A DNA stretch of 36,616 nucleotides. It comes from Chitinophagaceae bacterium. GTDB taxonomy: Bacteria > Bacteroidota > Bacteroidia > Chitinophagales > Chitinophagaceae. A program made the position numbers and the translations under genes. How positions within the stretch are numbered: the first letter of the stretch is position 1; the number at the start of each line of letters is the position of its first letter. Under the pieces are notes generated by a model. The model was given only the letters and a program-made list of their open reading frames with translations, did not search any database and was not told the DNA's origin. Below are positions 1,975 through 24,602 of this stretch, piece by piece. Where the stretch lies: assembly GCA_027486835.1 (NCBI GenBank), contig JAIXOJ010000089.1:1-36616 (forward strand), given 5' to 3'.

Positions 1975-2075
1975 CGCAAAGAATTAGTGGGTAAAAATAG
2001 TTATTCACATCCACAAATAGGCATGTGGATAGAAAAAAAGATTTTTTTCATCAAACTAACTACTCCTGCTGTGAA

Positions 2076-2274: not shown

Positions 2275-2280
2275 CTACTA

Positions 2281-4101: not shown

Positions 4102-4131
4102 TGAATGCTTTTGCAAGTGTTTTAATATAAA

Positions 4132-4680: not shown

Positions 4681-4720
4681 TTGTTTACTATAGTTATTGA
4701 TGGATTATTGAAAAACTAAT

Positions 4721-5491
4721 TTAAAATACGGGCTTGCCTAATAATGCCTGAACAAACAAGAAGGTTGTAACTATAAAGTAAATAGCCGCAGCCATTACAA
4801 TGGTTTTAATATCCTTCAACAAATAATATCCAAGCAATGGAAGTACCTGCAAAGCATGCATCCCCAAAAAATGAGCGATTCTTAAATCGCCGTGGTGCTT
4901 GCTCCATTGAGTAACCGGAAATCCTTCTCCACCATCCGCAGCCCCTACCGTATGCGCCAATCTAGCACCCATTAGGCCGCCCTCAAGCGCAAAGACTACA
5001 AATAGCAACAGACCAAAACGGATACCCCAAACATAAGAGTCAGGCAACTGGGGGAATGTGGTAGTAAAAAAAAGAAAACTAAGGAAGGCGGTCCACACCG
5101 TTAATACCAATATAGATATGCCCATTGCTGCATACATGGCCGAGTTAAACGATGTGCTGATATTGAAATGTGACAACTCCCCTTTGCTAGCTTTGAACGC
5201 TATATATAGGGTTTCAAAAGCTAAAATTGCTATGGTTGTGCAACTATAGGCAAACACATGTCTGGGTGTATTGAGGTAATGCAGTATCCATGCCATTGTA
5301 AAACTAAAAATGGCAGAGGAAATAAAAAACTTGAAGGGTTTTAACCAAGCATTTGCCCCTGCAATTATGGTTTCTGTTTTAGCAATACCCACAATGCAGG
5401 CTATTGCCATAACCATGCAAATCCATCCAAAAGAAGATAAAATGGGATTCCGATGATGTAGTGTTGCGAAGAAATCGATAATAAAATTCAT
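4721..5491 (-). CDS. Polytopic membrane protein of unknown function
   Basis: 256 residues with about seven hydrophobic helices. A polar loop between the later helices carries a dense, probably conserved signature: G-G-x-x-G-A-R-x-A-H-T-V-G, then D-G-G-E-G-F-P, W-S-x-x-H-G-D-L-R, and finally A-H-F-x-G-M-H-A-L-Q-x-L-P. The His, Arg and Asp residues at the membrane face suggest a metal- or cofactor-binding site or an enzyme active site (inference). I do not recognise a named family. It lies 40 nt upstream of idi on the same strand, so an isoprenoid-related role is possible but unproved; it does not look like the known heterodimeric-type lycopene cyclases. Confidence 0.75.
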   Translation of the reverse strand: MNFIIDFFATLHHRNPILSSFGWICMVMAIACIVGIAKTETIIAGANAWLKPFKFFISSAIFSFTMAWILHYLNTPRHVFAYSCTTIAILAFETLYIAFKASKGELSHFNISTSFNSAMYAAMGISILVLTVWTAFLSFLFFTTTFPQLPDSYVWGIRFGLLLFVVFALEGGLMGARLAHTVGAADGGEGFPVTQWSKHHGDLRIAHFLGMHALQVLPLLGYYLLKDIKTIVMAAAIYFIVTTFLFVQALLGKPVF

Positions 5492-5539
5492 GGTAAATCA
5501 ATGCTGAAAGATGAATAAAGCAGTATAAACTTTCTTGTG

Positions 5540-5592
5540 GCAATTAATTGAAAGTACTCTAACTTATTTTTTAAGGTACTTCAACTAATTGC
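5540..5592. repeat. Inverted repeat upstream of the membrane protein-idi pair
   Basis: GCAATTAaTTGAAaGTAC (5540-5557) and GTACtTCAAcTAATTGC (5576-5592) form an imperfect 16-bp dyad around an 18-nt AT-rich spacer, about 50-100 nt upstream of the start at 5491. The left arm contains TGGCAATTA, resembling the TTGGCAATTT boxes at 6326-6472, so it may be another operator of the same regulator (inference). Nothing else is seen in 5492-5757. Confidence 0.4.
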
Positions 5593-5757
5593 AGCAAATA
5601 TAAAATTCGACGAGGTACATAAAAATTTTTACGCATTCGCTAAAAGCCGAAATTGGATTCTACACTTCATAGCGTTGATAAAGAATGGCATGTTCAAATG
5701 GGAGCACTTTTTTCCACCTAAAACGACATTTCAACTGCTGTTGCTATACTGTTACTC

Positions 5758-6270
5758 TTACAATCCTGCCAAATAGGCATCAGCTTCTTGCTGTAGCAGT
5801 GCTATTGAAACAGTCAATTTTTTTTGAAGTACCAGTCCATTGTCTTCTATGCGCTTTTCGGCTTGATACTGTTGTTCGGCCAGCCATCGCTGCCGTCTTT
5901 CTGTAGCATTTTCTGGCTTAGCTTCCAGTGTAGGCAACAGTTGCAACATACGCAGCCCTTGTGCATATCGCTGCTGCATTTTGGTCAGTTGCATCTCTAG
6001 CTTCTTTCTTTTAAACTCGCAGTTTGCCGCCATTTCTTGCAATTGGGTACGTTCCTCTGTTGACAGGGGTAGTGGCTCGGGAGTAGGTAGCCCATGAAGA
6101 AATGTAAACATTTCGGCCATTTTTATTAAAGCTAGGGCAGGTAATGTGCGGGTATTATCGATAAATCGGGACAAGTTACTTGGATTTACTTCTATATAAG
6201 AAGCCAAATCCTGATGGGTAACGCCTGTTAAAGACACTATAGATTCAGGTAGAGACAGTTCCTTTGGCAT
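5758..6270 (-). CDS. HTH (XRE-like) regulator with C-terminal coiled coil
   Basis: 170 residues. Residues about 14-55 form a helix-turn-helix of the lambda-repressor/XRE kind (T-H-Q-D-L-A-S-Y-I, then N-P-S-N-L-S-R-F-I-D as the recognition helix, then L-P-A-L-A-L-I-K-M-A). Residues about 75-165 are charged, Leu/Gln-rich and helical, probably a coiled-coil dimerisation region. Its own upstream DNA holds a cluster of AAATTGCCAA boxes, starting about 55 nt before the ATG, which suggests autoregulation. It lies between idi and the carotenoid genes, all reading the same way, so pigment control is conceivable but not shown. No effector-binding domain is visible. Confidence 0.75.
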   Translation of the reverse strand: MPKELSLPESIVSLTGVTHQDLASYIEVNPSNLSRFIDNTRTLPALALIKMAEMFTFLHGLPTPEPLPLSTEERTQLQEMAANCEFKRKKLEMQLTKMQQRYAQGLRMLQLLPTLEAKPENATERRQRWLAEQQYQAEKRIEDNGLVLQKKLTVSIALLQQEADAYLAGL

Positions 6271-6325
6271 GAAAAACGTTTTTGTATTTAAAACTCAAAG
6301 AAAATAAGTTGCGGCAAAATAGTAG

Positions 6326-6472
6326 TTGGCAATTTAAAACAATCAGTAGAAACAAATTGCCAATGCAGGCAAAAACAATTAGGCAATTTATTCAGATTGC
6401 CTAAATAAAATTGCCAACATTGGCAAAAATCAATTTCTCTGTTTTAAAAATTGCCAAAAGAATAATTGCCAA
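6326..6472. promoter_or_regulatory. Cluster of AAATTGCCAA/TTGGCAATTT operator-like boxes
   Basis: Boxes seen: TTGGCAATTT 6326-6335; AAATTGCCAA 6354-6363; an inverted pair TTAGGCAAT 6379-6387 and ATTGCCTAA 6396-6404; an inverted pair AAATTGCCAA 6408-6417 and TTGGCAAAAA 6420-6429; AAATTGCCAA 6448-6457; TAATTGCCAA 6463-6472. That is eight occurrences in 147 bp, in both orientations, all inside the upstream region of the HTH gene. They most likely form an operator array bound cooperatively by that regulator. Confidence 0.6.
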
Positions 6473-6858
6473 ATTATTTTTTCATTCCTTTTGATTGAAA
6501 AAAGGTTCTATCACTCAGAAAACCGTTTTCGGGGTTAAAAACGATAAAGTGGTTTACAGTAAAAACACCTGCTTGCTTTTCCATTTGTTGAAAAGAGGAC
6601 AACATAAACTAAGCGGTGTATAACGAGGCATCCTGACTCGAATAGAGAAGAACCATTTTATACCACTTCGTTATTTGTTTTAGCAGTAAAATGTATGTCT
6701 TATTCAGGTTTGGTTAGGATGATTGGAAAGTTTTTTAGCCTTTTTGTTTTTTTGTGTATTTCACAACTATACATGTAAAAGTGTGGTCAGTCTTTTTGAA
6801 ATTGCATTCTGCAAGGTGGAATTAAACAAATGAGCAACTTGAATTGCATCATGCAACC
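6473..6858. other. Non-coding stretch with twin TTGCAT-type palindromes
   Basis: I see no credible gene in these 386 bases. At the right end are two 13-bp palindromes, TTGCATTCTGCAA (6802-6814) and TTGCATCATGCAA (6844-6856), spaced 42 nt start to start and ending 2 nt before the stop codon of phytoene synthase. They could be protein-binding sites or weak RNA hairpins. Neither has a U-tract typical of a terminator. Confidence 0.4.
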
Positions 6859-7701
6859 TCACATAATGTTCAATTGGCTGCGAATGCCTGCTTTGGCTAC
6901 AATAAATAATTTATTATAATCTGGTATTCTGACTCTTTCGTGCATTATTTTTTGCGGTTGAAGTTGTTGTATTTTTTTAAATAAGGATAGATAGTATTTA
7001 TATGCCACGTACACGCCAAAACGGGCTTGGATAGGCAGCATCAAAATGGCATTATAAGCTGCATCGAAATCGCGCTGGATATCTGCTTCGATGGCCGCTT
7101 TGTCTGTTTGCCCAAAATTATTAAAGTCGCATTGGGGGAAATAGACACGCTCCAAACCCATAAAATCAGCCTTAATATCACGCAAGAAATTTACCTTTTG
7201 AAAAGCGGCTCCTAAACTTTTTGCCCCTGGTTTTAATTGTTCATACAAGGCTTCGTTACCATCACAGAATACATACAAACACATTAAACCAACAACCTCG
7301 GCACTACCATAAATATATTCTTCGTAGCCAGCACGATCATATTGCTGTTTGTTTAAGTCAAGCTCCATGCTATGAAGAAAAGCTTCAATTAGTGATGGAT
7401 CAATATTGTATTGGTTAACGGTAATTTGAAAACTATTTAAAATTGGATTAAGGCTAATGCCTTTATCAATGGCTTCGTAAGTGTCTGTTCTAAATTTTTG
7501 TAAGAGTACTGCTTTATCGTGATCGTGGAAAGTATCTACTATTTCATCTGCAAAACGTACAAAACCATAGATATTATAAATAGGTTGTCGTAATGATTTC
7601 CCCAATAGTTTGATGGCTGAAGAAAAACTGGTACTATATTTTTCTGTGGTGTTTTTACTGCACTCCTGGCAAACGTTGTGGAAGAGTTGCATGTTAGTCA
7701 T
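6859..7701 (-). CDS. crtB: Phytoene synthase (squalene/phytoene synthase family)
   Basis: Condenses two geranylgeranyl diphosphates into phytoene, the first committed step of carotenoid synthesis. 280 residues, a usual length for bacterial CrtB. Both Mg-diphosphate binding aspartate motifs are present: D-E-I-V-D (52-56) and R-D-I-K-A-D (174-179), the latter in K-V-N-F-L-R-D-I-K-A-D followed by G-L-E-R-V-Y-F-P. It is the last gene of the leftward sigma factor - crtI - crtB group, 149 nt after crtI. Squalene synthase is the main alternative in the family, but the direct neighbour crtI argues for phytoene. An in-frame ATG three codons in is an alternative start. Confidence 0.93.
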   Translation of the reverse strand: MTNMQLFHNVCQECSKNTTEKYSTSFSSAIKLLGKSLRQPIYNIYGFVRFADEIVDTFHDHDKAVLLQKFRTDTYEAIDKGISLNPILNSFQITVNQYNIDPSLIEAFLHSMELDLNKQQYDRAGYEEYIYGSAEVVGLMCLYVFCDGNEALYEQLKPGAKSLGAAFQKVNFLRDIKADFMGLERVYFPQCDFNNFGQTDKAAIEADIQRDFDAAYNAILMLPIQARFGVYVAYKYYLSLFKKIQQLQPQKIMHERVRIPDYNKLFIVAKAGIRSQLNIM

Positions 7702-7850
7702 ATTCCTGATTCCGATTTTTAATGGGGCTGATTCCTTATGGAATCTTTTTAAAATTAGGTACTATTTATTTGAATTTTAAATTACCAATCACCAATGGTT
7801 TTGTTTAGAAATCAAGGAAAGAAAAGAATTTTTTTTGTATAGGGCTATTG

Positions 7851-9335
7851 TTAACCAAAAGCTTTAACAATTTCTTTGGCTACCACTTCGCCACTAATTA
7901 AACTTGGCGGCACTCCTGGGCCAGGTACCGTAAGCTGTCCTGCATAATATAAATTCTTCACTTTACTGCTTTTACAAGCGGGTTTCAAAATAGCAGTTTG
8001 CAGGAGTGTATTTGCCAATCCATAGGCATTCCCTTTGAATGCGTTGTAATCTTCCACAAAATCGGTTAGAGCAAATGACTTTTTGTACACCACATGCGGA
8101 CGGATGGATTGATTAAATTGTTGTTCCATGCGGGCAATGATCATATCAAAATACTTTTCCCTCAATGGTTCATCATCGCCGGTAAGACCAGTGGCTACAG
8201 GAATAAGAAGGAATAGATTTTCACAATTTTCAGGCGCACCAGAAGGATCTGTGGCAGTGGTGGCGCTTACATAAAACAATGGATTGCTGGGCCATTTTTT
8301 GTCGGTATAAATTTCATTACCATGAACCTCAAAAGAAGTATCAAAAAATAGGGAATGATGCGGAACATCTTTAAGGCGTTTATTCAACCCAACATAGTAC
8401 AATAGACAACTGGGCGCCATCACTCTTTTCTCCCAATACTCATCTGTGTAAGAACGCATGTTCGATGGCAGCAACTTGGCTTCTATGTGGTGATAATCTG
8501 CACTACCTACCACTATTGAAGCTTCGAACCTATCACCATCTGTACATTCAATACCAGTTGCAATAGCATCATTGATGGTAATCTTGCTAACGTTTTTGTT
8601 GAATTGGAACTGAACACCAAGTTCGACTGCTAATTGATACATCCCGTCCACCACTTGATACATGCCCCCATTGGGAAACCAAGTACCTCCCTTTATGTCA
8701 GCATAATTCATGAGGCTGTATAAAGCAGGGGTGTTTTTGGGTAGTGCTCCTAAAAAAAGTACTGGAAAAGCAAGCAATTGGCGGAGTTGCTCATTTTTAA
8801 ATAATCCGTTGATGTGGGATTGTATGGAGTTAAACACATCGAGTCTAAACACGCCACTAATTAAATCCCAATCAATAAATTCTGTTAATGATCTTCCGGG
8901 TTTGTGTACCAGCTTGTTGATACCTACCTCATATTTATAGGCAGCTTCTGCCAAAAATTGATCAAGTTTTTCGCCACTTCCAGGTTCCGTTTTTTCAAAT
9001 AATGCTTTTAATGCTTCATAATTTGCTGGAATATCCATTGTGCCGTCTGGCCAATAGATTCTATAAGAGGGGTCTAATCTTGTAAGTGTATAATAATCCG
9101 AGACTCGTTTGCCAAATTGAGCAAAATACCTTTCGAAAACATCTGGCATCCAATACCAACTTGGCCCCATATCAAATGTGAACCCAGCGGCCTCCATTCT
9201 TCTTGCCCTGCCTCCTGGTATGGCGTGTTTTTCCACCACCGTTACCTCATAACCCCATTTTGCTAAAAAGCTGGCTACAGATAATCCTGAAAATCCAGCT
9301 CCTATGACCACTACTTTTTTATGATTGTTTTTCAT
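7851..9335 (-). CDS. crtI: Phytoene desaturase
   Basis: FAD-dependent desaturase that converts phytoene to neurosporene or lycopene. 494 residues, standard CrtI length. The N-terminal dinucleotide-binding motif G-A-G-F-S-G (12-17), the acidic strand end V-V-E-K and P-G-G-R-A-R-R are present, and the C-terminal signature Y-Y-A-G-Q-L-T-V-P-G-P-G-V-P closes the protein. The number of desaturation steps cannot be read from sequence. It lies 140 nt downstream of an ECF sigma gene and 149 nt upstream of crtB on the same strand. These gaps are larger than in a tight operon, so internal promoters are possible. Confidence 0.95.
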   Translation of the reverse strand: MKNNHKKVVVIGAGFSGLSVASFLAKWGYEVTVVEKHAIPGGRARRMEAAGFTFDMGPSWYWMPDVFERYFAQFGKRVSDYYTLTRLDPSYRIYWPDGTMDIPANYEALKALFEKTEPGSGEKLDQFLAEAAYKYEVGINKLVHKPGRSLTEFIDWDLISGVFRLDVFNSIQSHINGLFKNEQLRQLLAFPVLFLGALPKNTPALYSLMNYADIKGGTWFPNGGMYQVVDGMYQLAVELGVQFQFNKNVSKITINDAIATGIECTDGDRFEASIVVGSADYHHIEAKLLPSNMRSYTDEYWEKRVMAPSCLLYYVGLNKRLKDVPHHSLFFDTSFEVHGNEIYTDKKWPSNPLFYVSATTATDPSGAPENCENLFLLIPVATGLTGDDEPLREKYFDMIIARMEQQFNQSIRPHVVYKKSFALTDFVEDYNAFKGNAYGLANTLLQTAILKPACKSSKVKNLYYAGQLTVPGPGVPPSLISGEVVAKEIVKAFG

Positions 9336-9475
9336 TTGGACTTATCGGTTTTAATGAAGAAGATATTCAGCATGAAAAATCAGGGTCAAGTTTTGGGATA
9401 CTCTTTACTTTAAATATTGGTAAATGGGGGTTAACTATTTTTTTTAAGCAAGTAGATAATAAATAAGGTCTGCTT

Positions 9476-9976
9476 TTAATAGCGTTCAATCTGTTCTTTC
9501 AACAATTTGCGAGCAAAGTGAATACGGCTTTTGATGGTGCCGAGCGGCTCTCCAAGCATTTCTGCAATTTCGTGGTACTTATAACCATCAAAGTATAGCA
9601 AGAATGGGTTTTTAAAAATGATGGGTAGGTTATGAATAGCTTCCTGTACTTCTTTAATGTTTAAGCTAGCAACAGCTTGATTGACCACCGCACCTTGGTT
9701 AATGTTCAACAAATACTCATTAGGTGTGCTATCAAAAATGGTATTTTGTTTAGCCTTCCTACGATAATTGTTAATAAATATGTTACGCATGATGGTGTAC
9801 AACCATGCTTTAATATTGGTACCTGCGTGGTATTTTTCTTTATTGGCTAAAGCCCTGAAAAGTGTTTCTTGAAATAAATCCTTCGCTTGTTCATTGTCCC
9901 TTGTTAGGGTGATTGCGAATGGTTTTAAAAATTCGGTGTTGTTCAAAAGCATTTGATTAAAATCGTTCGTTGTCAT
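9476..9976 (-). CDS. ECF-type RNA polymerase sigma factor
   Basis: 166 residues with the two domains of an extracytoplasmic-function sigma factor. Region 2 is about 20-90 (L-F-Q-E-T-L-F-R-A-L, then W-L-Y-T-I-M-R-N-I-F-I-N-N-Y-R-R) and region 4 about 110-166 (F-L-L-Y-F-D-G-Y-K-Y-H-E-I-A-E-M, then G-T-I-K-S-R-I-H-F-A-R). It heads the crtI-crtB group, resembling carotenoid loci controlled by a local sigma factor, as with CarQ of Myxococcus. No anti-sigma gene is adjacent, so control may be transcriptional. Its upstream region (9977-10202) contains the palindrome ACAAACGGTTTGT at 10118-10130, a possible operator. Confidence 0.9.
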   Translation of the reverse strand: MTTNDFNQMLLNNTEFLKPFAITLTRDNEQAKDLFQETLFRALANKEKYHAGTNIKAWLYTIMRNIFINNYRRKAKQNTIFDSTPNEYLLNINQGAVVNQAVASLNIKEVQEAIHNLPIIFKNPFLLYFDGYKYHEIAEMLGEPLGTIKSRIHFARKLLKEQIERY

Positions 9977-10236
9977 GATATTTTCTATTTTTCCAGTACT
10001 AAAAAGGGTTTTGTTTAATTATGATGGATGCGAAGCTAAACAAAAAATTGCCCTTGTAGCACTACTGCTCGTAAAAAAGCATAAAATAATCTCTAAAGAG
10101 TGAAAAAAGTCTGGCAAACAAACGGTTTGTATCTCTTAGAAATTGTAGTCCGTTGGTTGATTTATAGCATAGGGTGAAATAAACGAACCCACTCCTACCG
10201 AAATGAGTAATGTGAAATACCGTGAAGCAAGGCAGC

Positions 10237-10244
10237 TATATTTG
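10237..10244 (+). promoter_or_regulatory. TAnnTTTG promoter element, probably leaderless start
   Basis: TATATTTG matches TAnnTTTG and ends 6 nt before the ATG at 10251, the same spacing as at 2267-2274. It argues that translation starts at 10251 rather than at the upstream in-frame ATG at 10203. Confidence 0.4.
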
Positions 10245-10250
10245 TCCCTG

Positions 10251-10604
10251 ATGCTTCGATTGCTTGCCAATTTTACGTTTGTACTGCTGTTGATTATACA
10301 GATGTTTTCAGTACGCGAGTATTGCATTGACCAAAGGACTAAGCAGATTTCACTAAACACCCCTGTATCACAGAACGAAGAAAAAGAAGAAGATGAAGAT
10401 GATACTGATGAAGACAGTTCAGGAGGAACTATGTCGCTCATCAAAAAACTAATGATTAGGCAGGCTATAGAATTATCACCCGAGGATTTGTCCATTGCAC
10501 AGCCAAAGGGGTTAGTGGCTATTCTTTACTCTGAATACGGTGTAATATTCCCCAACAATCTTGCCTGTGAAGTACAAACTCCACCACCCATTAAAGCTGT
10601 CTAA
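10251..10604 (+). CDS. Small single-pass membrane protein with acidic linker, unknown
   Basis: 117 residues from the chosen start. One hydrophobic segment near the N-terminus (about 3-23) could be a signal anchor or signal peptide. A strongly acidic low-complexity linker (E-E-K-E-E-D-E-D-D-T-D-E-D, about 45-60) is followed by a short folded-looking tail. The acidic stretch and the hydrophobic start suggest a real coding gene. A longer form starting at 10203 adds 16 residues. I do not recognise the family. It is divergent from the sigma-factor gene and alone on its strand until the SulP gene 250 nt later; that gap shows nothing clear. Confidence 0.55.
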   Translation: MLRLLANFTFVLLLIIQMFSVREYCIDQRTKQISLNTPVSQNEEKEEDEDDTDEDSSGGTMSLIKKLMIRQAIELSPEDLSIAQPKGLVAILYSEYGVIFPNNLACEVQTPPPIKAV

Positions 10605-14470: not shown

Positions 14471-14640
14471 AACATTTATGGGATACCAACACTGCCATCT
14501 ACAGAATCTTTGCCACCAACTTATTTTCCTGTTGGAAAAAATCGGCATATAGTGGGCATTCATGCACCAGTCTTTTTAGCCATTCTGCACCATCTTTTTG
14601 CGAAGTCAAGCGGGTATTCAGGTGTTCGGGGTCAATGTAG
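14461..14640 (+). pseudogene. Truncated PIN-domain (VapC-like) toxin remnant
   Basis: The frame starting at the ATG overlapping the antitoxin stop reads M-G-V-K-H-L-W-D-T-N-T-A-I-Y, the first strand and first catalytic Asp (D8) of a PIN ribonuclease. After codon 14 (14502) the reading has no PIN character. It is the antisense of the 3' end of the neighbouring leftward gene and stops at 14638-14640 after 59 codons. The remaining PIN acidic residues are missing, so it cannot be an active nuclease. The break coincides with the stop codon of the neighbour (14499-14501), pointing to a deletion or rearrangement junction here. Confidence 0.65.
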
Positions 14641-16979
14641 CCATGACGGCAGTTGGCATACATGGCATAAAATGCGGCCTGCTTTGCATCTTTTGCTAAA
14701 CGAGCCGCTTTTTGGTAGTAATAGGTGGCTTTCGGCGATTCGTAGGTTTCGTAAGAAGATAAATTGGTCATGAGCCAGAATTTGCCACTAGAACCCATAC
14801 TGAAATAAGCATTGCCAATGATATAGCAAAGCCGAGCCTTTTTTTCCATATTGGTTTCTTTGGCTTCTAGCGCTTTATAATGCATAAGTTTTTCTAGAAA
14901 ATGAGCTTTGTTAGGGTCATTCTTGTAGGTACTGTCTTGACTGTCTTCATTAGGATGGTAAATATTTACTTCAAAGGGATTTCCTGTGAGATAAAAACAA
15001 AAGGCGTGAGCGCTGTCGGTCCAAAATTGCGGTGCCACCTGTTTAAAGCTATGGAGTGCAGCAGCTATATTGTCTTGCTTTAGGTAGTAGATTCCTTGTA
15101 AATCATGTACCCTAAAAGTATCCCAAAGGGGTATCAACTGCCCATAATTGGTGTTACTAATCTGTTTACGCAAATTGGCTGAATCACCAGTTTCATAGCC
15201 ATAATTGCCATAATCGTAGAAAATAGCAAGGCGGTTAATGCAATACTGCTCATAATGTGAATGTTTTTTAGCTCGTAACACCTTTAATAACTGCTCAAAA
15301 TCTGCCCCTTTTGCATGTTCATATAATATGGTATAAACGTTTTTGGGGGAATTAAGCATCCAAACGCCCCAAGGCTTGTTGGTATTGCCAAGTAACAGTG
15401 CAGCATTTACCACATCGCCAAAAGCCAATAGCGTTTTCCCAAGGTAAATACACAGATCATCTTTAATGGATAAACTAGGATTAAAATTGTAATAATTTAC
15501 GTAGTTGTCTTCCAATGCTTTGTTCACCGTGTGCTGTGCATCCATGAAAGTAAGCAGTTGGTAAAGTTGTTCTTTCAGCGGTTCATCTAGTTTTCGTTGC
15601 TGTTGTAGGCGGATAGCCAGCATATTTATCCTTGCTTGCAAATAGTATGTTGAGGTTTTGGCACAAAGGTTCATGGCCTTGGTGCAATAGCTCAATGCTT
15701 GGTCATATTGGTGGAGCATTAGGTGCAGATGGCTGATGGCCAAATACTTCTCTGCTGGTTGAATGATTCCGTTTGTGGAAATGTCGGATACCAATGCCAA
15801 TAACTGCTGTGCATAAGCCCGTTCTTTTTGGCTACTCCCCTTTTCTACGCCATAGTTGTAGATAAAATAATCCTCCTCTTTCTGCGCTTCCTTGCCCATT
15901 AGAGCAGGGGTAAGTAAATAGGCTTCTACCTTATTGATTTCTCGGCTCAGCAGCAGGGGCAGCAACTTATTGTAAGGATCTAATTGAATGATTTTCTGTA
16001 GCGCAGCCAAGCAATGAGCCTGATTTTTCACGGCAAACACTGCATGGGCCAATGCCTTTTCCTTTTTAGTGGGCAATAGCGGAAGCAGGTGCTGTAGGCT
16101 ATCCCGCGTAATTACACGAATGGCTGCCAACCTTTTGTCTGGCGATTCTGACACTACATGCAGCAAATGGCGGTAGAAATTGGCATTGTGGATGTAATTC
16201 CTGGTGCGGCTAGGTTCTAGGTAATCATCATATGCACTGTTTCTATTGCTATCCTTTGCCGCAGTCATGGTTACGTAATACTCAGCCGCTGCTTTTATCC
16301 AAGGGGTTGTCCTAGGTTTGTTTAGATATTTTTTATACACCGAATCTAATGAGTGGGGCTGGTGACCGTAATGAAACAAGCGGCAAAGCAAATAGGCACA
16401 TCGCTCCTGAATAAAGGGATGCTTGGTGGTATTGAGGAGTTGGGCAAGTGCAAGCTGTGTTTGGCTTTCAGCATAGCTATGTACCGAGTCTAAACCCCAA
16501 GGGTCTTTATAGGCATTGAAACTATTGAATCGCTCGGCGCTTTTGGCTAACGTAAAATAAGTCCAAAACGCCTGATTGGTAGGTTGGCGTAAGGCTTTAA
16601 TAAAAGAGTTGCAGGTAAAAAAAGCCTGATTGGTATCTGCTAATGATTGATACTCCAAAATTGACATGGCCGTATCAAAATCGGGTTTAGAGAACTGTTG
16701 TTGCAAGGCTTTTCTCCAACTTAAATAGTTTTGGTTTAATTCTATGGCGGAGGCGTATACGTAACCATATTTGTTTTTTCCAAAAACGTCTAATGAAAAA
16801 TACAATGCCTCCAAATGACCAGAGGAGTCCAATGCCGAAGGTTGCCATAAAGCCACCCTAAAATCTTCATCGGGTATAAATCCAATGCAGGCGATGGTGG
16901 TGTGTTTGGGTAATAATAGCAGGAAAGCAAATAGTACACTAGTGCTTAAACACTTCCATTGCTTTTTCAATAGCGGCAT
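14499..16979 (-). CDS. Large secreted TPR-like protein, unknown function
   Basis: 826 residues from the chosen ATG; a second ATG four codons upstream (16991) is equally possible. A signal peptide (about 1-32, V-L-F-A-F-L-L-L-L-P core) is followed by a long, almost wholly alpha-helical protein. Parts look like degenerate tetratricopeptide repeats, for example Y-L-A-I-S-H-L-H-L-M-L-H-Q-Y-D-Q-A-L-S-Y-C-T-K-A-M and the C-terminal A-T-Y-Y-Y-Q-K-A-A-R-L-A-K-D. No catalytic motif is recognised. It is probably periplasmic. Its start overlaps the end of the upstream lipoprotein gene (16939) by about 40 nt, so the two are translationally coupled and probably work together. Its last codons lie against the truncated PIN gene. 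Confidence 0.8.
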   Translation of the reverse strand: MPLLKKQWKCLSTSVLFAFLLLLPKHTTIACIGFIPDEDFRVALWQPSALDSSGHLEALYFSLDVFGKNKYGYVYASAIELNQNYLSWRKALQQQFSKPDFDTAMSILEYQSLADTNQAFFTCNSFIKALRQPTNQAFWTYFTLAKSAERFNSFNAYKDPWGLDSVHSYAESQTQLALAQLLNTTKHPFIQERCAYLLCRLFHYGHQPHSLDSVYKKYLNKPRTTPWIKAAAEYYVTMTAAKDSNRNSAYDDYLEPSRTRNYIHNANFYRHLLHVVSESPDKRLAAIRVITRDSLQHLLPLLPTKKEKALAHAVFAVKNQAHCLAALQKIIQLDPYNKLLPLLLSREINKVEAYLLTPALMGKEAQKEEDYFIYNYGVEKGSSQKERAYAQQLLALVSDISTNGIIQPAEKYLAISHLHLMLHQYDQALSYCTKAMNLCAKTSTYYLQARINMLAIRLQQQRKLDEPLKEQLYQLLTFMDAQHTVNKALEDNYVNYYNFNPSLSIKDDLCIYLGKTLLAFGDVVNAALLLGNTNKPWGVWMLNSPKNVYTILYEHAKGADFEQLLKVLRAKKHSHYEQYCINRLAIFYDYGNYGYETGDSANLRKQISNTNYGQLIPLWDTFRVHDLQGIYYLKQDNIAAALHSFKQVAPQFWTDSAHAFCFYLTGNPFEVNIYHPNEDSQDSTYKNDPNKAHFLEKLMHYKALEAKETNMEKKARLCYIIGNAYFSMGSSGKFWLMTNLSSYETYESPKATYYYQKAARLAKDAKQAAFYAMYANCRHGYIDPEHLNTRLTSQKDGAEWLKRLVHECPLYADFFQQENKLVAKIL

Positions 16980-18048
16980 AATTTGTAGCATTTACATGGT
17001 CAATATCAAAAAACACAACACTAAATTCGGGTTGGTTAAGGGCTTTTTTACACAGGTTAGCCGCTTGCAGCAACGATTTTTCGCTGATGGTTTCGTGGCG
17101 CAATACATCGCCTTGGTGCAGCAATCGGTCGTGCAAAACGGTATCTATTAGCAGTTCGAAGTTATTACCCGAAAGCGGACGTACATACGGCGGGAAACTA
17201 AAGAATGAATCCTCTATTTGATTGTCTAAGCCTACAAATTGTCCGTTTCTAAATATAACTGTCCACGAAAAAAAGGGCAGCGCAATGTTCATTTTTACTG
17301 GGTAGCTAGCTGCCTGTTGGAAATAAGGTTTAGCCGCTGCTTCGGTAAAAATGGAGTTTTCTTCTTTAGGGCTTTTTAGTTGCCCGGTATTGTAGCACAT
17401 GAGGTACACTTCATCCACGGGGGGCACTCCCGTTTGTTTCGGGTATTTATATTGATGCAGCCGAAGCGTGGCCGATAGCAGCAAGGAAGGCTGTTGTTGT
17501 TTAAGGGCTTGGAGCAGTTGGAAATACTTGTTGCGGGTCTGCACCGTCCAGTCGCAATCTATTTGTAGTGCATGGTAATGGAGTGGTGTATTAGGAGGCG
17601 GTGGCGGTGGTTGAGAATAATAAAAGGGGTTAGTGGATATATGGAGTATCTCTGTTTTCAGTAGTATTTTATTGGCCAATGCGGCTATTTGGTTGCTATC
17701 TATTTTTTCCAAGGTACGGTTGGTAATAAACACCACGGGGGTAACAGGGGCAGTAAACGTATCCCAATGATTGCGGAAAAGCGAATCACAATTAAATGTA
17801 GCGGTGGGGTATGCGCCATAAATGTCTGACCAATCTACGTCCATCACTTTTATAAACACCTGTCCACAACGCAGCGTAATGGCAGAGTCACTTTGCGAAT
17901 AGCTATGATTTCCCATCATCCGCCAATGATAAAAACCCAAGGTAGGATGCTTGGGTTGTCGCTTACACCCAAAGCAGCATAAAGTGGCGATGACAAATAC
18001 GACGAAAAAGCGAGTAGTTATTTGTTTTATGGTAACGAGTTGCAGCAT
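16939..18048 (-). CDS. Lipoprotein with TIM-barrel-like (DUF3142-like) features
   Basis: 369 residues from the ATG that gives a clean lipoprotein signal (hydrophobic F-F-V-V-F-V-I-A-T-L-C then C-F-G-C, lipid-attachment Cys about residue 28). An upstream in-frame ATG at 18135 adds 29 residues that spoil the signal. The mature part begins G-F-Y-H-W-R. It contains L-Q-I-D-C-D-W-T followed by a helix with K-Y-F-Q-L-L-Q-A-L-K, a strand L-L-L-S-A-T-L-R-L, D-E-V-Y-L-M-C-Y-N and M-N-I-A-L-P-F-F-S-W. This series of barrel strands with acidic ends resembles glycoside-hydrolase-like DUF3142 proteins (tentative). It is coupled to the downstream 826-residue protein by overlap; a surface or periplasmic pair is likely. 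Confidence 0.75.
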   Translation of the reverse strand: MLQLVTIKQITTRFFVVFVIATLCCFGCKRQPKHPTLGFYHWRMMGNHSYSQSDSAITLRCGQVFIKVMDVDWSDIYGAYPTATFNCDSLFRNHWDTFTAPVTPVVFITNRTLEKIDSNQIAALANKILLKTEILHISTNPFYYSQPPPPPPNTPLHYHALQIDCDWTVQTRNKYFQLLQALKQQQPSLLLSATLRLHQYKYPKQTGVPPVDEVYLMCYNTGQLKSPKEENSIFTEAAAKPYFQQAASYPVKMNIALPFFSWTVIFRNGQFVGLDNQIEDSFFSFPPYVRPLSGNNFELLIDTVLHDRLLHQGDVLRHETISEKSLLQAANLCKKALNQPEFSVVFFDIDHVNATNYAAIEKAMEVFKH

Positions 18049-18409
18049 AAATACAGGTTGATTTGCCCCCAAGCAATGCACCAATATTAGCTGAAATAGT
18101 TGATTGGGGAGGGGGTGGGAGGGATTGGGACACAATATTTTTTGTGGCTAAAAAAATAATCGGAAAAAATTCAAATTACCATTATTGTGTTTTTGACAAA
18201 TAAAAAAAATAGTATAAAATTCAAGACGGACAAGCGTTACAAATTAACCTCATTGGTAAAGGTTCGGGGGAGATGTTAATTCAATAGACTTGAAATGTTG
18301 AATACACACGTATGCACCCACATAATTTAACACTTATTTTTTACTGGCAAAAGAAACTTTTTCTATTATTGCACACGATAGCATTCTTTTAGAATTACAA
18401 AAAATATTT
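18049..18409. other. Divergent intergenic region, no gene seen
   Basis: Separates the leftward lipoprotein gene from the rightward gene at 18410. AT-rich. TATTATTG (18364-18371) is one base from TAnnTTTG and may be the promoter of the rightward gene. Nothing else is recognisable. Confidence 0.4.
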
Positions 18410-19005: not shown

Positions 19006-19109
19006 GTGGGTTGCAGTTCAAATACTTGTTCAGCCTGAGGTAAATCCAAAGCCTTGTGTGCATAAAACCAACAGAGAGCAGTTGTAGCCCCATTTTTACG
19101 TGTACTTAC

Positions 19110-19552
19110 CAAAGTTTTACCCTTAAGTACGTAAAGTTTTACGTTCTTGACCTAAAGTTTTAGGCTCAGGACGTAAAACTTTAGGCTTTATATCTAAAGT
19201 TTTACCCCTAGGGAGGTAAAGTTTTGGGTTCTTGACCTAAAGTTTTACCTCGCGGAGGTAAAGTTTTGGGTTCTTGACCTAAAGTTTTAGGCTCGGGACT
19301 TAAAATTTTGGGTTCTTGGTCTAAAGTTTTATGCTCGGGACTTAAAATTTTGGGTTCTTGGTCTACAGTTTTAGGCTCGGGACGTAAAGCTTTGGGTTTT
19401 TGGTCTGAAGTTTTACTTCGAGGACGTTAAGTTTTGGGTTCTTGGTCTAAAGTTTTAGGCTCGGGATGTAAAGTTTTGGGTTTTTGGTCTATAGTTTTAG
19501 GCTCGGGACTTAAAATTTTGGGTTTTTGGTCTAAAGTTTTACCTGTGTAAAC
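19110..19552. repeat. Minisatellite of 21-bp units (about 21 copies)
   Basis: Each unit starts with the near-palindromic core TAAAGTTTT plus a 12-bp tail. Tails alternate between type A (AGGCTCGGGACT) and type B (GGGTTCTTGGTC), giving a 42-bp higher-order period. Unit starts run 19132, 19153, 19174, 19195, then (after one 22-bp unit) 19217, 19238 ... to 19532 at exact 21-bp steps. Left copies are more diverged than right copies. Stops in all forward frames argue against coding. One reverse frame is open for 72 codons (19211-19426, P-E-P-K-T-L-D-Q type) but has no start. Confidence 0.9.
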
Positions 19553-19925
19553 AATATTTGGTCATACACCTCGCTTATTAGATGTGTTCTTTACATGGTT
19601 TTTCCCTTCAATCCCAAATAGGATGAAGCTGGTAACAAAATTCAAAACCCAGGGCTTTATAGCACTGGTAAAAGCATTTCAAAGTAAAAAAGGAGCGCAG
19701 TACTATCAAAGTGACTATATCGAATGTTAAAGCAAATCAAGATATTTGCGAACACTTGGAGGCTGGATAAGATGAAGCCAAGCTATTTTTTTAGAGCACT
19801 CAATTAAAGTATAAAAAACGTAATTATGAACCCTAAAATTGGATACCCTATAGTTTGTTCACAGCCCATGTGGTTTCAATTGTCTGCAGATGCTAATGGT
19901 CTTATTACAGAATTTTACTCAAATA
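19553..19925. other. Non-coding or decayed stretch between minisatellite and palindromic element
   Basis: Only very short frames are present: 35 codons from the ATG at 19622, and 52 codons at 19826-19984 whose end runs into the palindromic element (so its last residues are dictated by the repeat). Neither has a recognisable domain. It may be the remains of a displaced gene. Confidence 0.35.
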
Positions 19926-20124: not shown

Positions 20125-21915
20125 ATGAAGATAATTAGCACCCATACATTCAAACACATCCTTAGAGATATTCACAAAAAATCTAGTAACAGAAACTTCT
20201 GTTTTATCATTGGTGCAGGAGCCAGCTATAAAAGTGGTATCCCCACAGGAGGCCAATTAGCAAATGGTTGGTTTAAAGAAATACAATACAGATCCTCAAC
20301 CAAAGAATTTGAACAATGGATAGCGGATGTAAAGCTTGATAAAAATGACCTTGCTGCCCATTATGGGGATATTTACAGAAAACGTTTTGAGTACGATAAA
20401 ACATCGGGGTACGAGTTTTTAATTCAGGCAATGCGAGATGCGAAACCATCGTTTGGCCACTTTGTACTAGCCCAAATATTGACCAAAGTGCCAGAAAGTT
20501 GTGTTTTGACTACCAATTTTGACAGCTTAGTGGAGTCCTCCATTTATCAATATACCGATAAAACACCCTTAGTATGTGGCCATGAATCGCTAAGTGGTTA
20601 TGCCCGACCCTCTAAAATTCACCCATTAATCATTAAGATTCATAGAGACCTATTGTTGGCCCCCATGAGTGAACCTAACCAGATAAATGCATTAGATAAA
20701 GCTTGGAAAGAACCCTTGGATAATATTTTTAGCACCCATATACCCATCATTATTGGTTATGGAGGAAATGATGGCAGCTTGATGACCTATTTTGAACAAA
20801 TGAACAAGCCGAGCAATTTCTTTTGGTGTGGACTTGCTAACAACCCACCATCGAACCATATAAAAGAATTGGTGGCAAAAATGGGTGGATGCTATGTGGA
20901 AATTGATGGATTTGACCAATTGATGCATGAGCTATTGTGGGTTTTTGATGAAATTAAACCAGCAGATGAAGAATTAGAAACCATCACTAAGAGTAGGTTA
21001 GAGGCCATGAAAAAGCAACTAACGGAAATGAAGAATAAACCAAGCACGACTAACGCTACTGAAACAAATACGGTTAAGGAACTGTCGGCATTTGAATATG
21101 CCAACCTTGCGGACAATGAACCCGATTATGAAAAACGAAAAACCATTTATTTAGAAGCATTAGAGAAATTTCCAAATACCGCTTGGTTATGGAATAAGTT
21201 CACCTACTTTTTGCAATGGGTAAAAAAGGACTATTCTAATTTAAATGACTATTATCTAAAAGCTTTATCCATTGACCCTGAATATGCAATGAATATTGGA
21301 AATTATGCCGCTTACTTATTCGATATTAAAAAGGATTATGAAAATGCAGAAAAATATTATCTCAAAGCCTTAGCAATAGACCCTAAAAATGCAAACATTA
21401 ATGGGAATTATGCAAATTATTTGTGTGATATAAAAAAGGATTATGAAAATGCAGAAAAATATTATCTCAAAGCCTTAGCCATAGACCCTGAAAATGAAAA
21501 CAATAATGGGAATTATGCAGTTTTCTTAAAAGAAATAAAAAAGGATTATGAAAATGCAGAAAAATATTACCTCAAGGCCTTATCGATTGACCCAAATAGT
21601 GAAAATAAGAATGGAAATTATGCAAAGTTGTTATTAATAACAAATAGACAAAATGAAGCAACTACTTATGTAGAAAAAGCATTTGAGTTAAATAAAAATG
21701 AAGAAAATGGATTATTACTAGAGTTATGGTTTTACCGATTTGCACATTATCCAGAATGGTTGGATAAGGCCGAACAAGCAATGGAGCAATTGTTAGAAAA
21801 AGGAATTCAATCCATTGGTTGGGATTTCTCACAAAATATAGAAATAGCCATTGCTAATAACCACCCCAAACCGGATAAACTAAAAGAGCTTGCAAAGAGA
21901 ATTACAGAGAAGTAA
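20125..21915 (+). CDS. SIR2-domain protein with C-terminal TPR repeats (putative defence NADase)
   Basis: 596 residues. The N-terminal SIR2-like Rossmann domain (about 20-285) has the NAD-binding G-A-G-A-S (30-34), T-T-N-F-D-S-L-V-E (129-137), K-I-H-R-D (171-175, with the usual catalytic His but Arg where many have Gly) and I-I-I-G-Y-G-G-N-D (208-216). A charged linker (~285-315) leads to about five TPR-like repeats (to ~510), three almost identical, and a helical tail. SIR2-TPR architectures occur in antiphage systems where SIR2 depletes NAD+ on infection. That role is inferred from domain family and from the adjacent Septu-like genes. No signal peptide; cytoplasmic. Confidence 0.85.
   Translation: MKIISTHTFKHILRDIHKKSSNRNFCFIIGAGASYKSGIPTGGQLANGWFKEIQYRSSTKEFEQWIADVKLDKNDLAAHYGDIYRKRFEYDKTSGYEFLIQAMRDAKPSFGHFVLAQILTKVPESCVLTTNFDSLVESSIYQYTDKTPLVCGHESLSGYARPSKIHPLIIKIHRDLLLAPMSEPNQINALDKAWKEPLDNIFSTHIPIIIGYGGNDGSLMTYFEQMNKPSNFFWCGLANNPPSNHIKELVAKMGGCYVEIDGFDQLMHELLWVFDEIKPADEELETITKSRLEAMKKQLTEMKNKPSTTNATETNTVKELSAFEYANLADNEPDYEKRKTIYLEALEKFPNTAWLWNKFTYFLQWVKKDYSNLNDYYLKALSIDPEYAMNIGNYAAYLFDIKKDYENAEKYYLKALAIDPKNANINGNYANYLCDIKKDYENAEKYYLKALAIDPENENNNGNYAVFLKEIKKDYENAEKYYLKALSIDPNSENKNGNYAKLLLITNRQNEATTYVEKAFELNKNEENGLLLELWFYRFAHYPEWLDKAEQAMEQLLEKGIQSIGWDFSQNIEIAIANNHPKPDKLKELAKRITEK
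21226..21645 (+). repeat. 105-bp intragenic tandem repeats encoding TPR units
   Basis: The word AAGGA-TATG or its relative begins at 21226 (diverged), 21331, 21436 and 21541, exactly 105 bp apart (35 residues per unit). Units 2-4 are nearly identical at DNA level over the 5' half (AAAATGCAGAAAAATATTA), which indicates recent duplication or gene conversion and a potential for copy-number change without frameshift. Confidence 0.85.
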
Positions 21916-22174: not shown

Positions 22175-23944
22175 ATGAATGTTTGGAAAATAAGTTCTAG
22201 ATGGGATGAGAATGGAGGAAGGGAGGCCTCAATTTTATGGTTATTCAAAGAGCTAAAATTTGTATTTGCCTACACGTACGATTCAAAAATTAAGGAAAGG
22301 GTTAAATCTGGTGATTTGGTGGCCATTGCTGATGGAAGGACTGTTGTAGCAATAGGCAGGGCTATTAAAGACCCCTGTCTGATAATTGATTTTGATGAAG
22401 AAGCGCTAAGTAAGTACGATGACGGCAATGATGTTTATGGTTTTGAAGTTGACTTGGTAGAACTATTACCCGAAGAAAACTTTCATTACACACGTTCCAC
22501 ATTTCATGTTGTTCAAAGTGAATTTAGAAACAAAGTCATTGATTTATATAAAAGGCATAAGAATGTTTCTTTCCTTGAGGGTTATTTCAGGATAGACAAT
22601 TTAGAATTAACAAATTTTAAAAAGTATGAACATCTAGACATCGCTTTCAATCCCTGCATTAATTTATTTGTAGGCTTAAACGGGAGCGGAAAAACCACTT
22701 TGTTAGATGCAATAAGTGTGGCAGTTGGTGGGTTCTTTTCAAGTAGGGAAAGTAAAATGCAACGCTACATTAAATTCGAAGAAATAAGAATGACTGGTGT
22801 AGATGTAGAAACTGGTAAAATACGCCGGGAAGCCAAAACAAGTGTTTCAGCTACATGGAATCAACACCATTTTCTTTGGAAACGAACCATGAATAGGGAC
22901 ACAAAAAGCAATGAAAACAAAGACATGTTTTGGGCTGGTAATTATGGAGATATTTTTTTTGAAGGGTTCGAAAAAAACAATGGCGATAGAACGTTGGTTG
23001 CCCCATTGATTGCATACTATTCAACCTACAGGCTTTCAAAAGACAATAACCAAAATAAGTCACTGAATTACGATTTCGCAATGGGTCGGCAGAATGGCTA
23101 TTTGCGCTGTTTAGATGAAAAAGGAATCAAACAAACTTTGTCAGAATGGCTAGGAAATGCCTATTCCAGACGAGCGACCTTCAAATTAAAGGAAATTGAA
23201 AGGAGGGATTTAGATTTAGATAATGTTGAGGCTGCCATAAAAAAAGTAATGATACTTTTTTTGAAACTCCCCGAGGATTTTGCACTAAAGATATTTCCAG
23301 AGCCTGATGAGGATAACGAATTATACATTGGGTATGACCAACATATAATGCCCCTCAGTTATTATGCGGATGGTTTTAGAAATGTGCTGTTTTTGGTGAT
23401 AGACTTAGTATGGCGAGCATCTAAGTTAAATCCCTGGCTAGATATTGAAGGTTTAAAGGAATATTCTCATGGTGTTGTAATGATAGATGAAATAGACTTG
23501 CATTTACACCCAGGATGGCAAGCAGATGTACTACCACTTTTAAAAGATTTGTTTCCGAATGTTCAGTTTTTTATTACCACCCATAGCCCAACAGTAGTAG
23601 GTAATTTCAAGCCGAGAGAAAGAGAAAATCAGGATGGATTATTCAAGGATGGATTATTCATTATTGAAGACAACAAAATACATTCATATAACGACAGATA
23701 TTTTGGCAAGGAAATTAATGAGGTGCTTCGGGATGTTTTAGGGGCTTCGGACAGAAATATTGAAATACAACAGAAGCTTGATAAATTGTTGAACTTGGTC
23801 AGTGAAAATGCAAGCGATTATCAAGGTTTATTGGAAGAGCTTAAAAAAACTTTAGGCGAATATGATGCTGATATACAAAAGGTTGTAGCAATACTAGATT
23901 GGAATAAGTATAAAATAGAAAACAAGGATGCAGTTCATTCATAA
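22175..23944 (+). CDS. PtuA-like AAA ATPase with extra N-terminal domain (Septu/retron-Ec78-like)
   Basis: 589 residues. Residues about 1-130 form a separate domain beginning M-N-V-W-K-I-S-S-R-W with a central G-D-L-V-A-I-A-D-G-R-T-V-V-A-I-G (46-61), a beta-rich pattern reminiscent of PUA/EVE-like domains (tentative). An ABC/SMC-type ATPase follows: L-T-N-F-K-K (145-150), Walker A G-L-N-G-S-G-K-T-T (167-175), M-P-L-S-Y-Y-A-D-G-F (392-401) in the signature position, Walker B V-V-M-I-D-E-I-D (434-441) with L-H-P-G-W-Q, and H-loop T-T-H-S-P (468-472). It overlaps the HNH nuclease gene by 17 nt, so the products are made together. By analogy with Septu the ATPase would gate the nuclease during phage infection. 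Confidence 0.88.
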   Translation: MNVWKISSRWDENGGREASILWLFKELKFVFAYTYDSKIKERVKSGDLVAIADGRTVVAIGRAIKDPCLIIDFDEEALSKYDDGNDVYGFEVDLVELLPEENFHYTRSTFHVVQSEFRNKVIDLYKRHKNVSFLEGYFRIDNLELTNFKKYEHLDIAFNPCINLFVGLNGSGKTTLLDAISVAVGGFFSSRESKMQRYIKFEEIRMTGVDVETGKIRREAKTSVSATWNQHHFLWKRTMNRDTKSNENKDMFWAGNYGDIFFEGFEKNNGDRTLVAPLIAYYSTYRLSKDNNQNKSLNYDFAMGRQNGYLRCLDEKGIKQTLSEWLGNAYSRRATFKLKEIERRDLDLDNVEAAIKKVMILFLKLPEDFALKIFPEPDEDNELYIGYDQHIMPLSYYADGFRNVLFLVIDLVWRASKLNPWLDIEGLKEYSHGVVMIDEIDLHLHPGWQADVLPLLKDLFPNVQFFITTHSPTVVGNFKPRERENQDGLFKDGLFIIEDNKIHSYNDRYFGKEINEVLRDVLGASDRNIEIQQKLDKLLNLVSENASDYQGLLEELKKTLGEYDADIQKVVAILDWNKYKIENKDAVHS

Positions 23945-24602
23945 ACAAGATGCCCCACCAATAGGTTGGGAAAATTGGTTCACAACTGCCACAGGAAGAC
24001 GGTCATTTGATTATAAAGAAGACTATTCTGCAATGAGGAATATTCCAGAAGCGAGGAAATTTCTTTTAGAAGAGCAACATTATTTATGTGCTTATTGTCA
24101 AAAAGAAATCAAAATAAACACATCTTCAATTGAACATGTGGTACCTAAATCTTCTAATGTACCGTATTCAACTGTTTACCAAAACTTAGTGGCCATTTGT
24201 GTAAATCCTCCTAAAGATCCGGCTACAAAAAAATCACACTGTGGCGATCTGCGAGGCGATGATTTGTTAACACCCATTCTTTTTCACAAAGAAGCTCAAT
24301 TTACCATAGCATCTGGACACCCCTATTTTGAAGTGGAGAACGATGGGAGTATTGCGGCACAATGCAACTTGAAAGACCCAATTAAAAAGCAAGTTGAAGC
24401 ATTTATAGAAATTTTAAATCTTAATATTAGTACGCTTAAAAAGGATAGGGTGGTTGCTTATGACAAATTAGTAAAAAACATACCTCCAACGGAATTGGAG
24501 AACTTTCTAAAGCGACAAATTGAAATTATACTAGGCGATTTAAAACGACCATTTAGGCAGTTTCTTCTTTTATTCATAACAAAAAAATTGGCTCACAAAT
24601 AA
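23928..24602 (+). CDS. PtuB-like HNH endonuclease
   Basis: 224 residues of the HNH family found with Septu and retron Ec78 ATPases. Zinc/HNH residues: C-A-Y-C (C54, C57), S-I-E-H-V-V-P-K (H70), Y-Q-N-L-V-A-I-C (N86, C91) and S-H-C-G-D (H104, C105). The N-terminal 50 residues are the usual short helical lead. It starts inside the ATPase gene (ATG at 23928, 17-nt overlap), showing translational coupling and a likely complex. Predicted function is nucleic-acid cleavage when licensed by the ATPase. No reverse transcriptase or retron RNA was found nearby, so this resembles stand-alone Septu rather than a retron. Confidence 0.88.
   Translation: MQFIHKQDAPPIGWENWFTTATGRRSFDYKEDYSAMRNIPEARKFLLEEQHYLCAYCQKEIKINTSSIEHVVPKSSNVPYSTVYQNLVAICVNPPKDPATKKSHCGDLRGDDLLTPILFHKEAQFTIASGHPYFEVENDGSIAAQCNLKDPIKKQVEAFIEILNLNISTLKKDRVVAYDKLVKNIPPTELENFLKRQIEIILGDLKRPFRQFLLLFITKKLAHK

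What the first reader, a model, noticed from the sequence alone, without database searches (positions are those of the whole stretch)
22175..24602. Septu/Ec78-like ATPase-HNH pair with an extra N-terminal, possibly PUA/EVE-like domain on the ATPase
The ATPase has ~130 residues before the usual L-x-x-F-K start of PtuA-type ATPases. This block starts V-W-K-I-S-S-R-W and centres on G-D-L-V-A-I-A-D-G-R-T-V-V-A-I-G, which looks like a small beta-barrel of the PUA/EVE type. EVE-type domains bind modified bases in several restriction systems. A sensor for modified phage DNA fused to a PtuA-type motor and coupled (17-nt overlap) to an HNH nuclease would be a variant distinct from classical Septu, whose ATPase lacks such a domain, and from retron Ec78, as no RT is present.
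Basis: partly seen in the sequence, partly recalled or inferred. Interest (0 to 1): 0.72.

Follow-up and report, generated by a model that had tools for sequence, protein, structure and literature searches.

The report
Septu defence pair with added sensor-like domain
A two-gene bacterial anti-phage system of the Septu type carries, on its ATPase, an extra front domain otherwise seen on enzymes that cut chemically modified DNA, which suggests a defence switched on by modified phage nucleic acid.

Summary
22175-23944 encodes a PtuA-type ATPase (PADLOC PtuA model, residues 138-581, E 3.5e-87) with 137 extra N-terminal residues; 23928-24602 encodes a PtuB-type HNH protein, overlapping by 17 nt. 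The extra block is a real, mobile domain that the Pfam, PADLOC and NCBIfam scans do not recognise. Its closest relative is the N-terminus of a complete GmrSD enzyme (38% over 134 residues, 94 bits, same start). In 18 genomes with strong matches it sits on 15 McrB-type proteins (in several directly before an EVE domain), one GmrSD, one PDC-M01A ATPase followed by an HNH-like gene, and this one PtuA. The two closest PtuAs (53% and 51%), one from the same genome, lack it, so it was probably gained by domain shuffling. An EVE domain proper is not supported. A PUA-like fold is suggested by profile comparison, but both structure predictions failed (pLDDT 46 and 40). Best reading: a Septu variant in which a type IV recognition module senses modified phage nucleic acid and triggers PtuAB. 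Sensing is inferred, and the exact fusion was found once.

The parts
22175..22585 (+). N-terminal module of the ATPase, residues 1-137; shared with GmrSD, McrB-type and PDC-M01A proteins
   Evidence: no library family
22310..22357 (+). GDLVAIADGRTVVAIG motif, residues 46-61, the part that matches EVE and McrB-insert profiles
22586..23941 (+). PtuA-type ABC ATPase region, residues 138-589; Walker A at residue 167, Walker B at 434, TTHSP at 468
   Evidence: PADLOC PDLC00278 3.5e-87; PDB PtuA 8ee4 4.1e-36 over 139-570; motif positions
23928..24602 (+). PtuB-type HNH protein, 224 aa; CAYC at residue 54, EHVVPKS at 69, YQNLVAIC at 84
   Evidence: PADLOC PDLC00332 3.9e-29; Pfam HNH 8e-5 above its cut-off; TIGR02646 5.1e-17 above its cut-off
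23928..23944 (+). 17-nt overlap of the two reading frames

Best explanation
A stand-alone Septu (PtuAB) system whose ATPase has gained a recognition module of the kind carried by type IV, modification-dependent restriction enzymes. Shown here: PtuA and PtuB homology with catalytic motifs present, and a distinct, shuffled N-terminal domain shared with GmrSD, McrB-type and PDC-M01A proteins. Inferred: the module binds a modified base (or another mark of foreign nucleic acid) in phage DNA; binding is passed to the ATPase, which licenses the HNH protein PtuB to cut; the outcome is destruction of phage DNA or abortive infection through host nucleic-acid cleavage. The module would hold the trigger role that RT and msDNA hold in retron Ec78 (Eco7).
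For: PtuA/PtuB assignment. Closest relative of the module is on a complete GmrSD, GmrSD_N 2.3e-27 and GmrSD_C 1.8e-13. 15 McrB-type carriers among the 18 genomes with strong matches (with ORFs read), EVE directly after it in the four with a Pfam EVE hit, McrC next to one. A second module + ABC-type ATPase + HNH-like pair in L156. Module missing from the two sister PtuAs, while the module tree places the window with the GmrSD copy, which is what shuffling predicts. Profile similarity to EVE and McrB-insert domains. Septu and retron PtuAB act as phage-triggered nucleases in published work (passages).
Against: No binding or phage data. No EVE or other known recognition family is matched; the EVE similarity is short and local (34 columns, probability 43%), and the global alignment is weak (probability 7.9%); the McrB-insert match is 25 columns. 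Structure models unusable. The module's own role in McrB and GmrSD is unknown: in McrBs with EVE it may not be the base reader. The fusion to PtuA was seen once.
Confidence: 0.5

Rival explanations
1. The module binds RNA (for instance tRNA) and positions the PtuB substrate, rather than sensing modified phage DNA.
For: Septu EcB88 and retron-Eco7 PtuAB cut or deplete tRNA-Tyr (passages); PUA-type domains in general often bind RNA (recalled); some McrB-type systems are predicted to target RNA (passages of PMC11090510).
Against: The closest carrier is a GmrSD enzyme, a family known for cutting modified DNA (PMC7641849 passage); characterised tRNA-cutting PtuAs are not reported to need such a domain.
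Confidence: 0.17
2. The module is a protein-protein or oligomerisation element that tunes assembly or autoinhibition of the PtuAB complex, without recognising nucleic acid.
For: It can occur beside a separate EVE domain, which could be the actual reader; no known binding family is matched.
Against: It occurs on unrelated effectors (AAA_5 GTPase, GmrSD, two ABC-type ATPases), which is easier to explain by a shared ligand than by a shared protein interface; several carriers have it without an EVE hit (L109, L136, L137, L139, L136 incomplete).
Confidence: 0.23
3. An ordinary Septu system with an accidental or decaying N-terminal fusion that does nothing.
For: One PtuA fusion found in the genomes searched; other PtuA models with long N-termini exist (PDLC00287, 584 aa).
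Against: The frame is open, the start coincides with that of the GmrSD relative, and family positions are kept (Trp10, Asp47, Gly54, Leu97).
Confidence: 0.1

Closest known systems
Septu type I (PtuA1-PtuB1)
   Same: ATPase and HNH proteins match PADLOC PtuA1 and PtuB1 models and lie in one overlapping pair; no RT beside them
   Different: 137 extra N-terminal residues, absent from the closest PtuAs and not covered by any PADLOC model
Retron Ec78 / Eco7 effector pair (PtuA, PtuB)
   Same: Same ATPase-HNH chassis (NF041760 E 4.2e-56, NF041761 E 6.9e-20)
   Different: Scores far below the curated cut-offs (190.9 against 500 bits, 71.8 against 150); no RT found among the ORFs scanned, no Rfam hit in the window
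GmrSD type IV restriction enzyme (carrier L155 in G1011)
   Same: Same N-terminal module at the same start, 38% over 134 residues
   Different: Effector is GmrSD_N plus GmrSD_C, not PtuAB
McrB-type proteins with this module, several with EVE
   Same: Same module; AAA_5 effector
   Different: More distant module copies (22-27% to the window for the rows other than L138 and L137 in A4, 18% for L137); GTPase-McrC system
PADLOC candidate PDC-M01 (L156)
   Same: Module + ABC-type ATPase followed by an HNH-like gene; ATPase also matches PtuA1 PDLC00282 at 1.2e-64
   Different: Best match PDC-M01A 5.1e-121; module is internal (residues 85-210); nuclease PDC-M01B without a Pfam hit

Membership tests
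Septu type I | PtuA-type ATPase | tested here: met
   PADLOC PtuA1 3.5e-87 over residues 138-581; PDB PtuA 8ee4 4.1e-36
Septu type I | Adjacent PtuB-type HNH protein | tested here: met
   PADLOC PtuB1 3.9e-29, 17-nt overlap
Septu type I | No extra N-terminal domain on PtuA (as in the closest relatives) | tested here: not met
   137 extra residues; L004 and L150 lack them. Long N-termini do occur on some other PtuA models, so this marks a variant and does not exclude membership
Septu type I | Protection against phage | not testable with these tools
   needs phage challenge
Retron Ec78 | Reverse transcriptase and msr-msd RNA next to PtuAB | tested here: not met
   No RT Pfam hit in 23 of 28 ORFs of 120 aa or more; the other five are at most 170 aa; no Rfam hit in the window
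Retron Ec78 | NCBIfam equivalog cut-offs NF041760 and NF041761 | tested here: not met
   190.9 against 500 bits and 71.8 against 150 bits
EVE domain (PF01878) | Match to the Pfam model | tested here: not met
   No EVE hit for residues 1-134 or the whole protein at E<=1
PUA-like superfamily | Beta-barrel fold | tested here: inconclusive
   Models at pLDDT 45.8 and 40.2; no Foldseek match at E<=0.001 on the first
PUA-like superfamily | Profile similarity to members | tested here: inconclusive
   EVE: local score 29.4, 34 columns, above all 200 shuffles, but global probability 7.9%; McrB-insert family, itself PUA-like only by my reading: 41.3, 25 columns, above 198 of 200 shuffles, the two others being end artefacts
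Type IV recognition module | Homology to domains on modification-dependent restriction enzymes | tested here: met
   GmrSD 94 bits; 15 McrB-type carriers
Type IV recognition module | Binding of a modified base | not testable with these tools
   needs binding assays

The most novel reading that the evidence does not exclude
An undescribed plug-in recognition domain moves between type IV restriction enzymes (McrB, GmrSD) and Septu-type ATPase-HNH pairs (PtuAB, PDC-M01), so that some Septu systems are modification-sensing: the trigger is a phage base modification read by the ATPase's own N-terminus, in place of the retron msDNA.
Probability: 0.42. Interest if true: 0.75.

Novelty: new variant of a known kind. 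Interest (0 to 1): 0.58.

Why it matters
What activates stand-alone Septu is, as far as I recall, not settled. A Septu ATPase with a type IV recognition module offers a direct handle: the presumed trigger domain can be removed, exchanged or tested alone on modified DNA. It also defines a specificity domain missing from Pfam, PADLOC and NCBIfam that links McrBC, GmrSD, PDC-M01 and Septu and could be added to defence annotation.

Tried and rejected
EVE membership: rejected, no Pfam EVE match. Retron Ec78: rejected. Chance similarity: rejected by the McrB-only profile with 1000 shuffles and by the 94-bit BLASTP. Weak matches of the domain profile (E about 0.0005-0.1) were left out of the carrier count; those I read were HTH regulators, P-type ATPases, a permease and others over short stretches, and none scored above 20 bits when all loci were rescored. 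Of the 17 genomes at E<=0.1 (the window's included), five besides the window were McrB-type; I read nine of the 16 other loci, and the rest gave no strong hit.

The first EVE comparison was invalid, because my rows ran into the EVE domain; it was redone with trimmed rows. Structure: single-sequence model pLDDT 45.8, two-row model 40.2.

Seven scans of viral contigs: with the whole ATPase, gave two loci matching from residue 126 and 138 on; the six with the domain or McrB-type queries gave none. Plasmids: no hit for residues 1-134 at E<=1. Phages: four hits at E 0.4, not followed. Solved structures: no credible relative of the domain, and none for one McrB-insert domain. Two tRNA calls at 19153-19332 were rejected: they lie in a 42-bp tandem array and Rfam finds nothing there.

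Shuffle control: 2 of 200 column shuffles scored 133 and 138, above the real 41.3; one search shows them as alignments of 5 and 9 columns at the end of the template. The other 198 are at most 18.4. I treat the two as artefacts, but they show that this control is not clean. In the 61-row ATPase tree I dropped window duplicates, nine named loci and ORFs whose aligned span was under 330 residues before building.

Full report
Observation. The two ORFs are as described: 22175-23944 (589 aa) and 23928-24602 (224 aa), both +, overlapping by 17 nt. PADLOC assigns PtuA1 to residues 138-581 of the first (PDLC00278, 3.5e-87) and PtuB1 to the second (PDLC00332, 3.9e-29). The best solved-structure match is PtuA 8ee4, aligned over 139-570. 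Walker A (residue 167), Walker B (434) and TTHSP (468) are present, and the second protein has CAYC, EHVVPKS and YQNLVAIC. Residues 1-134 alone give no PADLOC or NCBIfam hit at E<=0.1 and only a 13-residue chance-level Pfam match.

Is the N-terminus unusual for PtuA? Among ORFs of 150 aa or more in the loci held at that time, 81 matched the window protein by BLASTP (E<=1e-5), three of them the window itself. Of the other 78, 12 lack the strict Walker A pattern that I used. Of the 66 left, 61 have Walker A within 53 residues of the start, two at 62 and 77, and three at 255, 306 and 389 (L048, L079, L081), against 167 in the window. L048 looks like an HNH-PtuA fusion by eye. A profile of the domain family, run over all frames of the loci then held, gave no strong match on a PtuA other than the window's; among the loci from the species-genome scan (L008-L081) its only strong hit was an McrB-type gene in L018. 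PADLOC does hold PtuA models with long N-termini (PDLC00287, 584 aa, matches L081 over 158-728), so a long N-terminus as such is not new. This one is not in that library.

Sister genes. Among 205 family genomes searched at E<=1e-25, 7 have a match; the closest PtuAs are L150 (53%, another genome) and L004 (51%, the window's own genome). Both start at the ATPase domain and lack the module. In a tree of 61 ATPase rows the window and these two form a group with 100/100 support, and the two module-free ones join at 98/83. The simplest history is a gain on the window lineage; loss in the others is not excluded.

What is the module? Searching residues 1-134 in 296 phylum genomes found only the window. 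In 294 family genomes 17 had a match at E<=0.1, the window included; the two best others (E 1e-4 and 5e-4) and three more were McrB-type proteins matched at equivalent positions. Profile searches then covered 395 phylum genomes (4 with a match at E<=0.01), 394 family genomes (33 at E<=0.1) and 395 class genomes (14 at E<=0.01); the samples overlap. Keeping only matches at E<1e-7, 18 different genomes carry the domain, the window's included. From the ORFs and Pfam on a subset, 15 are McrB-type, one is GmrSD, one is a PDC-M01A ATPase and one is the window's PtuA. Limits: the McrB label rests on Pfam AAA_5 for seven (L090, L108, L109, L135, L137, L139, and L136 below its cut-off) and on sequence likeness for the rest; L132 and L133 are nearly the same gene in two genomes; L132, L083 and L136 are cut or split. 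Pfam EVE directly follows the module in L090, L083, L108 and L135, and L134, L099 and L085 align with these EVE domains. L109, L136, L137 and L139 have no EVE hit. L137's gene is followed by McrC (PF10117, 1.8e-25).

Strength of the homology. A profile of eight McrB copies, window excluded, hits the window protein over residues 2-128 with 23.3 bits (E 3e-4 for a set of 97,973 sequences); the best of 1000 shuffles reaches 10.2. The GmrSD copy is much closer: 38% over 134 residues, 94 bits, both proteins starting MN(V/I)WKI; in a search of that genome with the whole window protein, the only match is residues 1-140 (E 5e-24). The GmrSD protein has GmrSD_N (2.3e-27) and GmrSD_C (1.8e-13). In a tree of 14 domain copies the window, GmrSD and one McrB (L139) are separated from the other 11 at 99/99; L139 is a very long branch, so its place is unsure.

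The PDC-M01A copy (L110, L156) is a second case of module + ABC-type ATPase followed at once by an HNH-like gene (PDC-M01B, 3.5e-61); its ATPase also matches a PtuA1 model at 1.2e-64. I call the partner HNH-like by eye; it has no Pfam hit.

Is it PUA-like? Suggestive only. hhalign of the trimmed domain profile against the EVE domains of the same McrBs gives a local score of 29.4 (probability 43%, 34 columns), above all 200 column shuffles (maximum 21.7), while the global alignment has probability 7.9%. Against an McrB-insert family with the same GD-motif pattern the score is 41.3 (probability 88.5%, 25 columns); 198 of 200 shuffles are at most 18.4 and two are end artefacts above 130. EVE membership as such is not met.

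Mechanism. Published work, seen as passages only: Septu EcB88, which has no retron, cleaves tRNA-Tyr in the variable loop, and both the PtuA ATPase and PtuB HNH motifs are needed (PMC13096335); retron-Eco7 PtuAB depletes tRNA-Tyr and is neutralised by RT with msr-msd, while another Septu is reported to target nicked DNA (PMC11555353); EVE-McrB is the commonest EVE architecture in defence systems, and rare EVE-GmrSD fusions exist (PMC7641849); McrBC proteins carry varied fused specificity domains (PMC11090510). From this I infer that the module is a specificity domain that detects a modified base in phage nucleic acid and activates PtuAB. Homology, architecture and the signs of shuffling are shown; binding, activation and target are inferred. 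The main rivals are an RNA-binding role and a purely structural role.

Print status. PUA with PtuA: 0 papers. Septu with modification-dependent: 14 papers, 10 listed, none of the listed titles about such a fusion. At least two of Septu, EVE domain, PtuA: 14 papers, none of which holds 'EVE domain'. Septu with modified, sensor domain and phage: 6 papers. The EVE census paper has no occurrence of Septu. Only open-licence PMC papers are covered, and the listed papers were not read beyond the passages named.

Host. The genome has 6.4 Mb in 219 contigs. It is probably Chitinophagaceae: G388, of the same family, has a contig of 1,719,030 bases, the same length as the Pseudoflavitalea sp. G-6-1-2 contig of L018, which the tree tool labels Chitinophagaceae. 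This is an inference.

Verdict. The finding is real, but with another label: not an EVE domain, but a module missing from the libraries searched and shared with GmrSD and McrB-type enzymes. It is a new variant of Septu, found once, with a plausible and untested sensing role.

Noticed in passing
window 20125-21915 (+): SIR2-like + TPR protein (596 aa) just upstream on the same strand, matching SIR2 parts of short-pAgo-associated models (PDLC02420, 2.1e-31, residues 12-319) with three 105-nt repeat units; possibly a second defence gene.
   Followed up: partly
window 19081-19583: Non-coding array of 42-bp tandem repeats that ARAGORN misreads as two overlapping tRNAs, one with anticodon TTA; no Rfam hit.
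   Followed up: partly
L159 (G000:C16:43000-57000), 1038-10332: The module-free PtuAB pair of the same genome lies between a DrmD-like helicase (PDLC02619, 1.3e-205) and a type III-like methyltransferase (PDLC03646, 1.9e-230), followed by an NsnA/GmrSD_N protein: Septu nested in a restriction-modification-like operon.
   Followed up: partly
L156:3845-6754: PDC-M01A ATPase with the same module inside it, followed at once by PDC-M01B (HNH-like by eye): a second module + ATPase + nuclease pair.
   Followed up: partly
L048:5329-7164: PtuA-like ATPase in a Draconibacterium MAG with an N-terminus that looks like HNH by eye, as if PtuB and PtuA were fused.
   Followed up: no
L081:4702-6918: Flavobacterium hydatis PtuA (PDLC00287, 9.7e-139) with about 360 residues before the ATPase and a different GD-type motif near its start; perhaps another sensor-like N-terminus.
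   Followed up: no
L018 / L144: Pseudoflavitalea locus where a PtuAB pair sits between an N6-methylase-like and a specificity-subunit-like ORF by eye, a few kilobases from an McrB-type gene that carries this module.
   Followed up: no
window 14499-16991 and 16939-18135 (-): Two long overlapping ORFs (830 and 398 aa) without a Pfam match at E<=1e-4.
   Followed up: no
L138/L155:2357-4567: A complete GmrSD enzyme with the module at its N-terminus, an architecture not named in the passages that I saw.
   Followed up: partly
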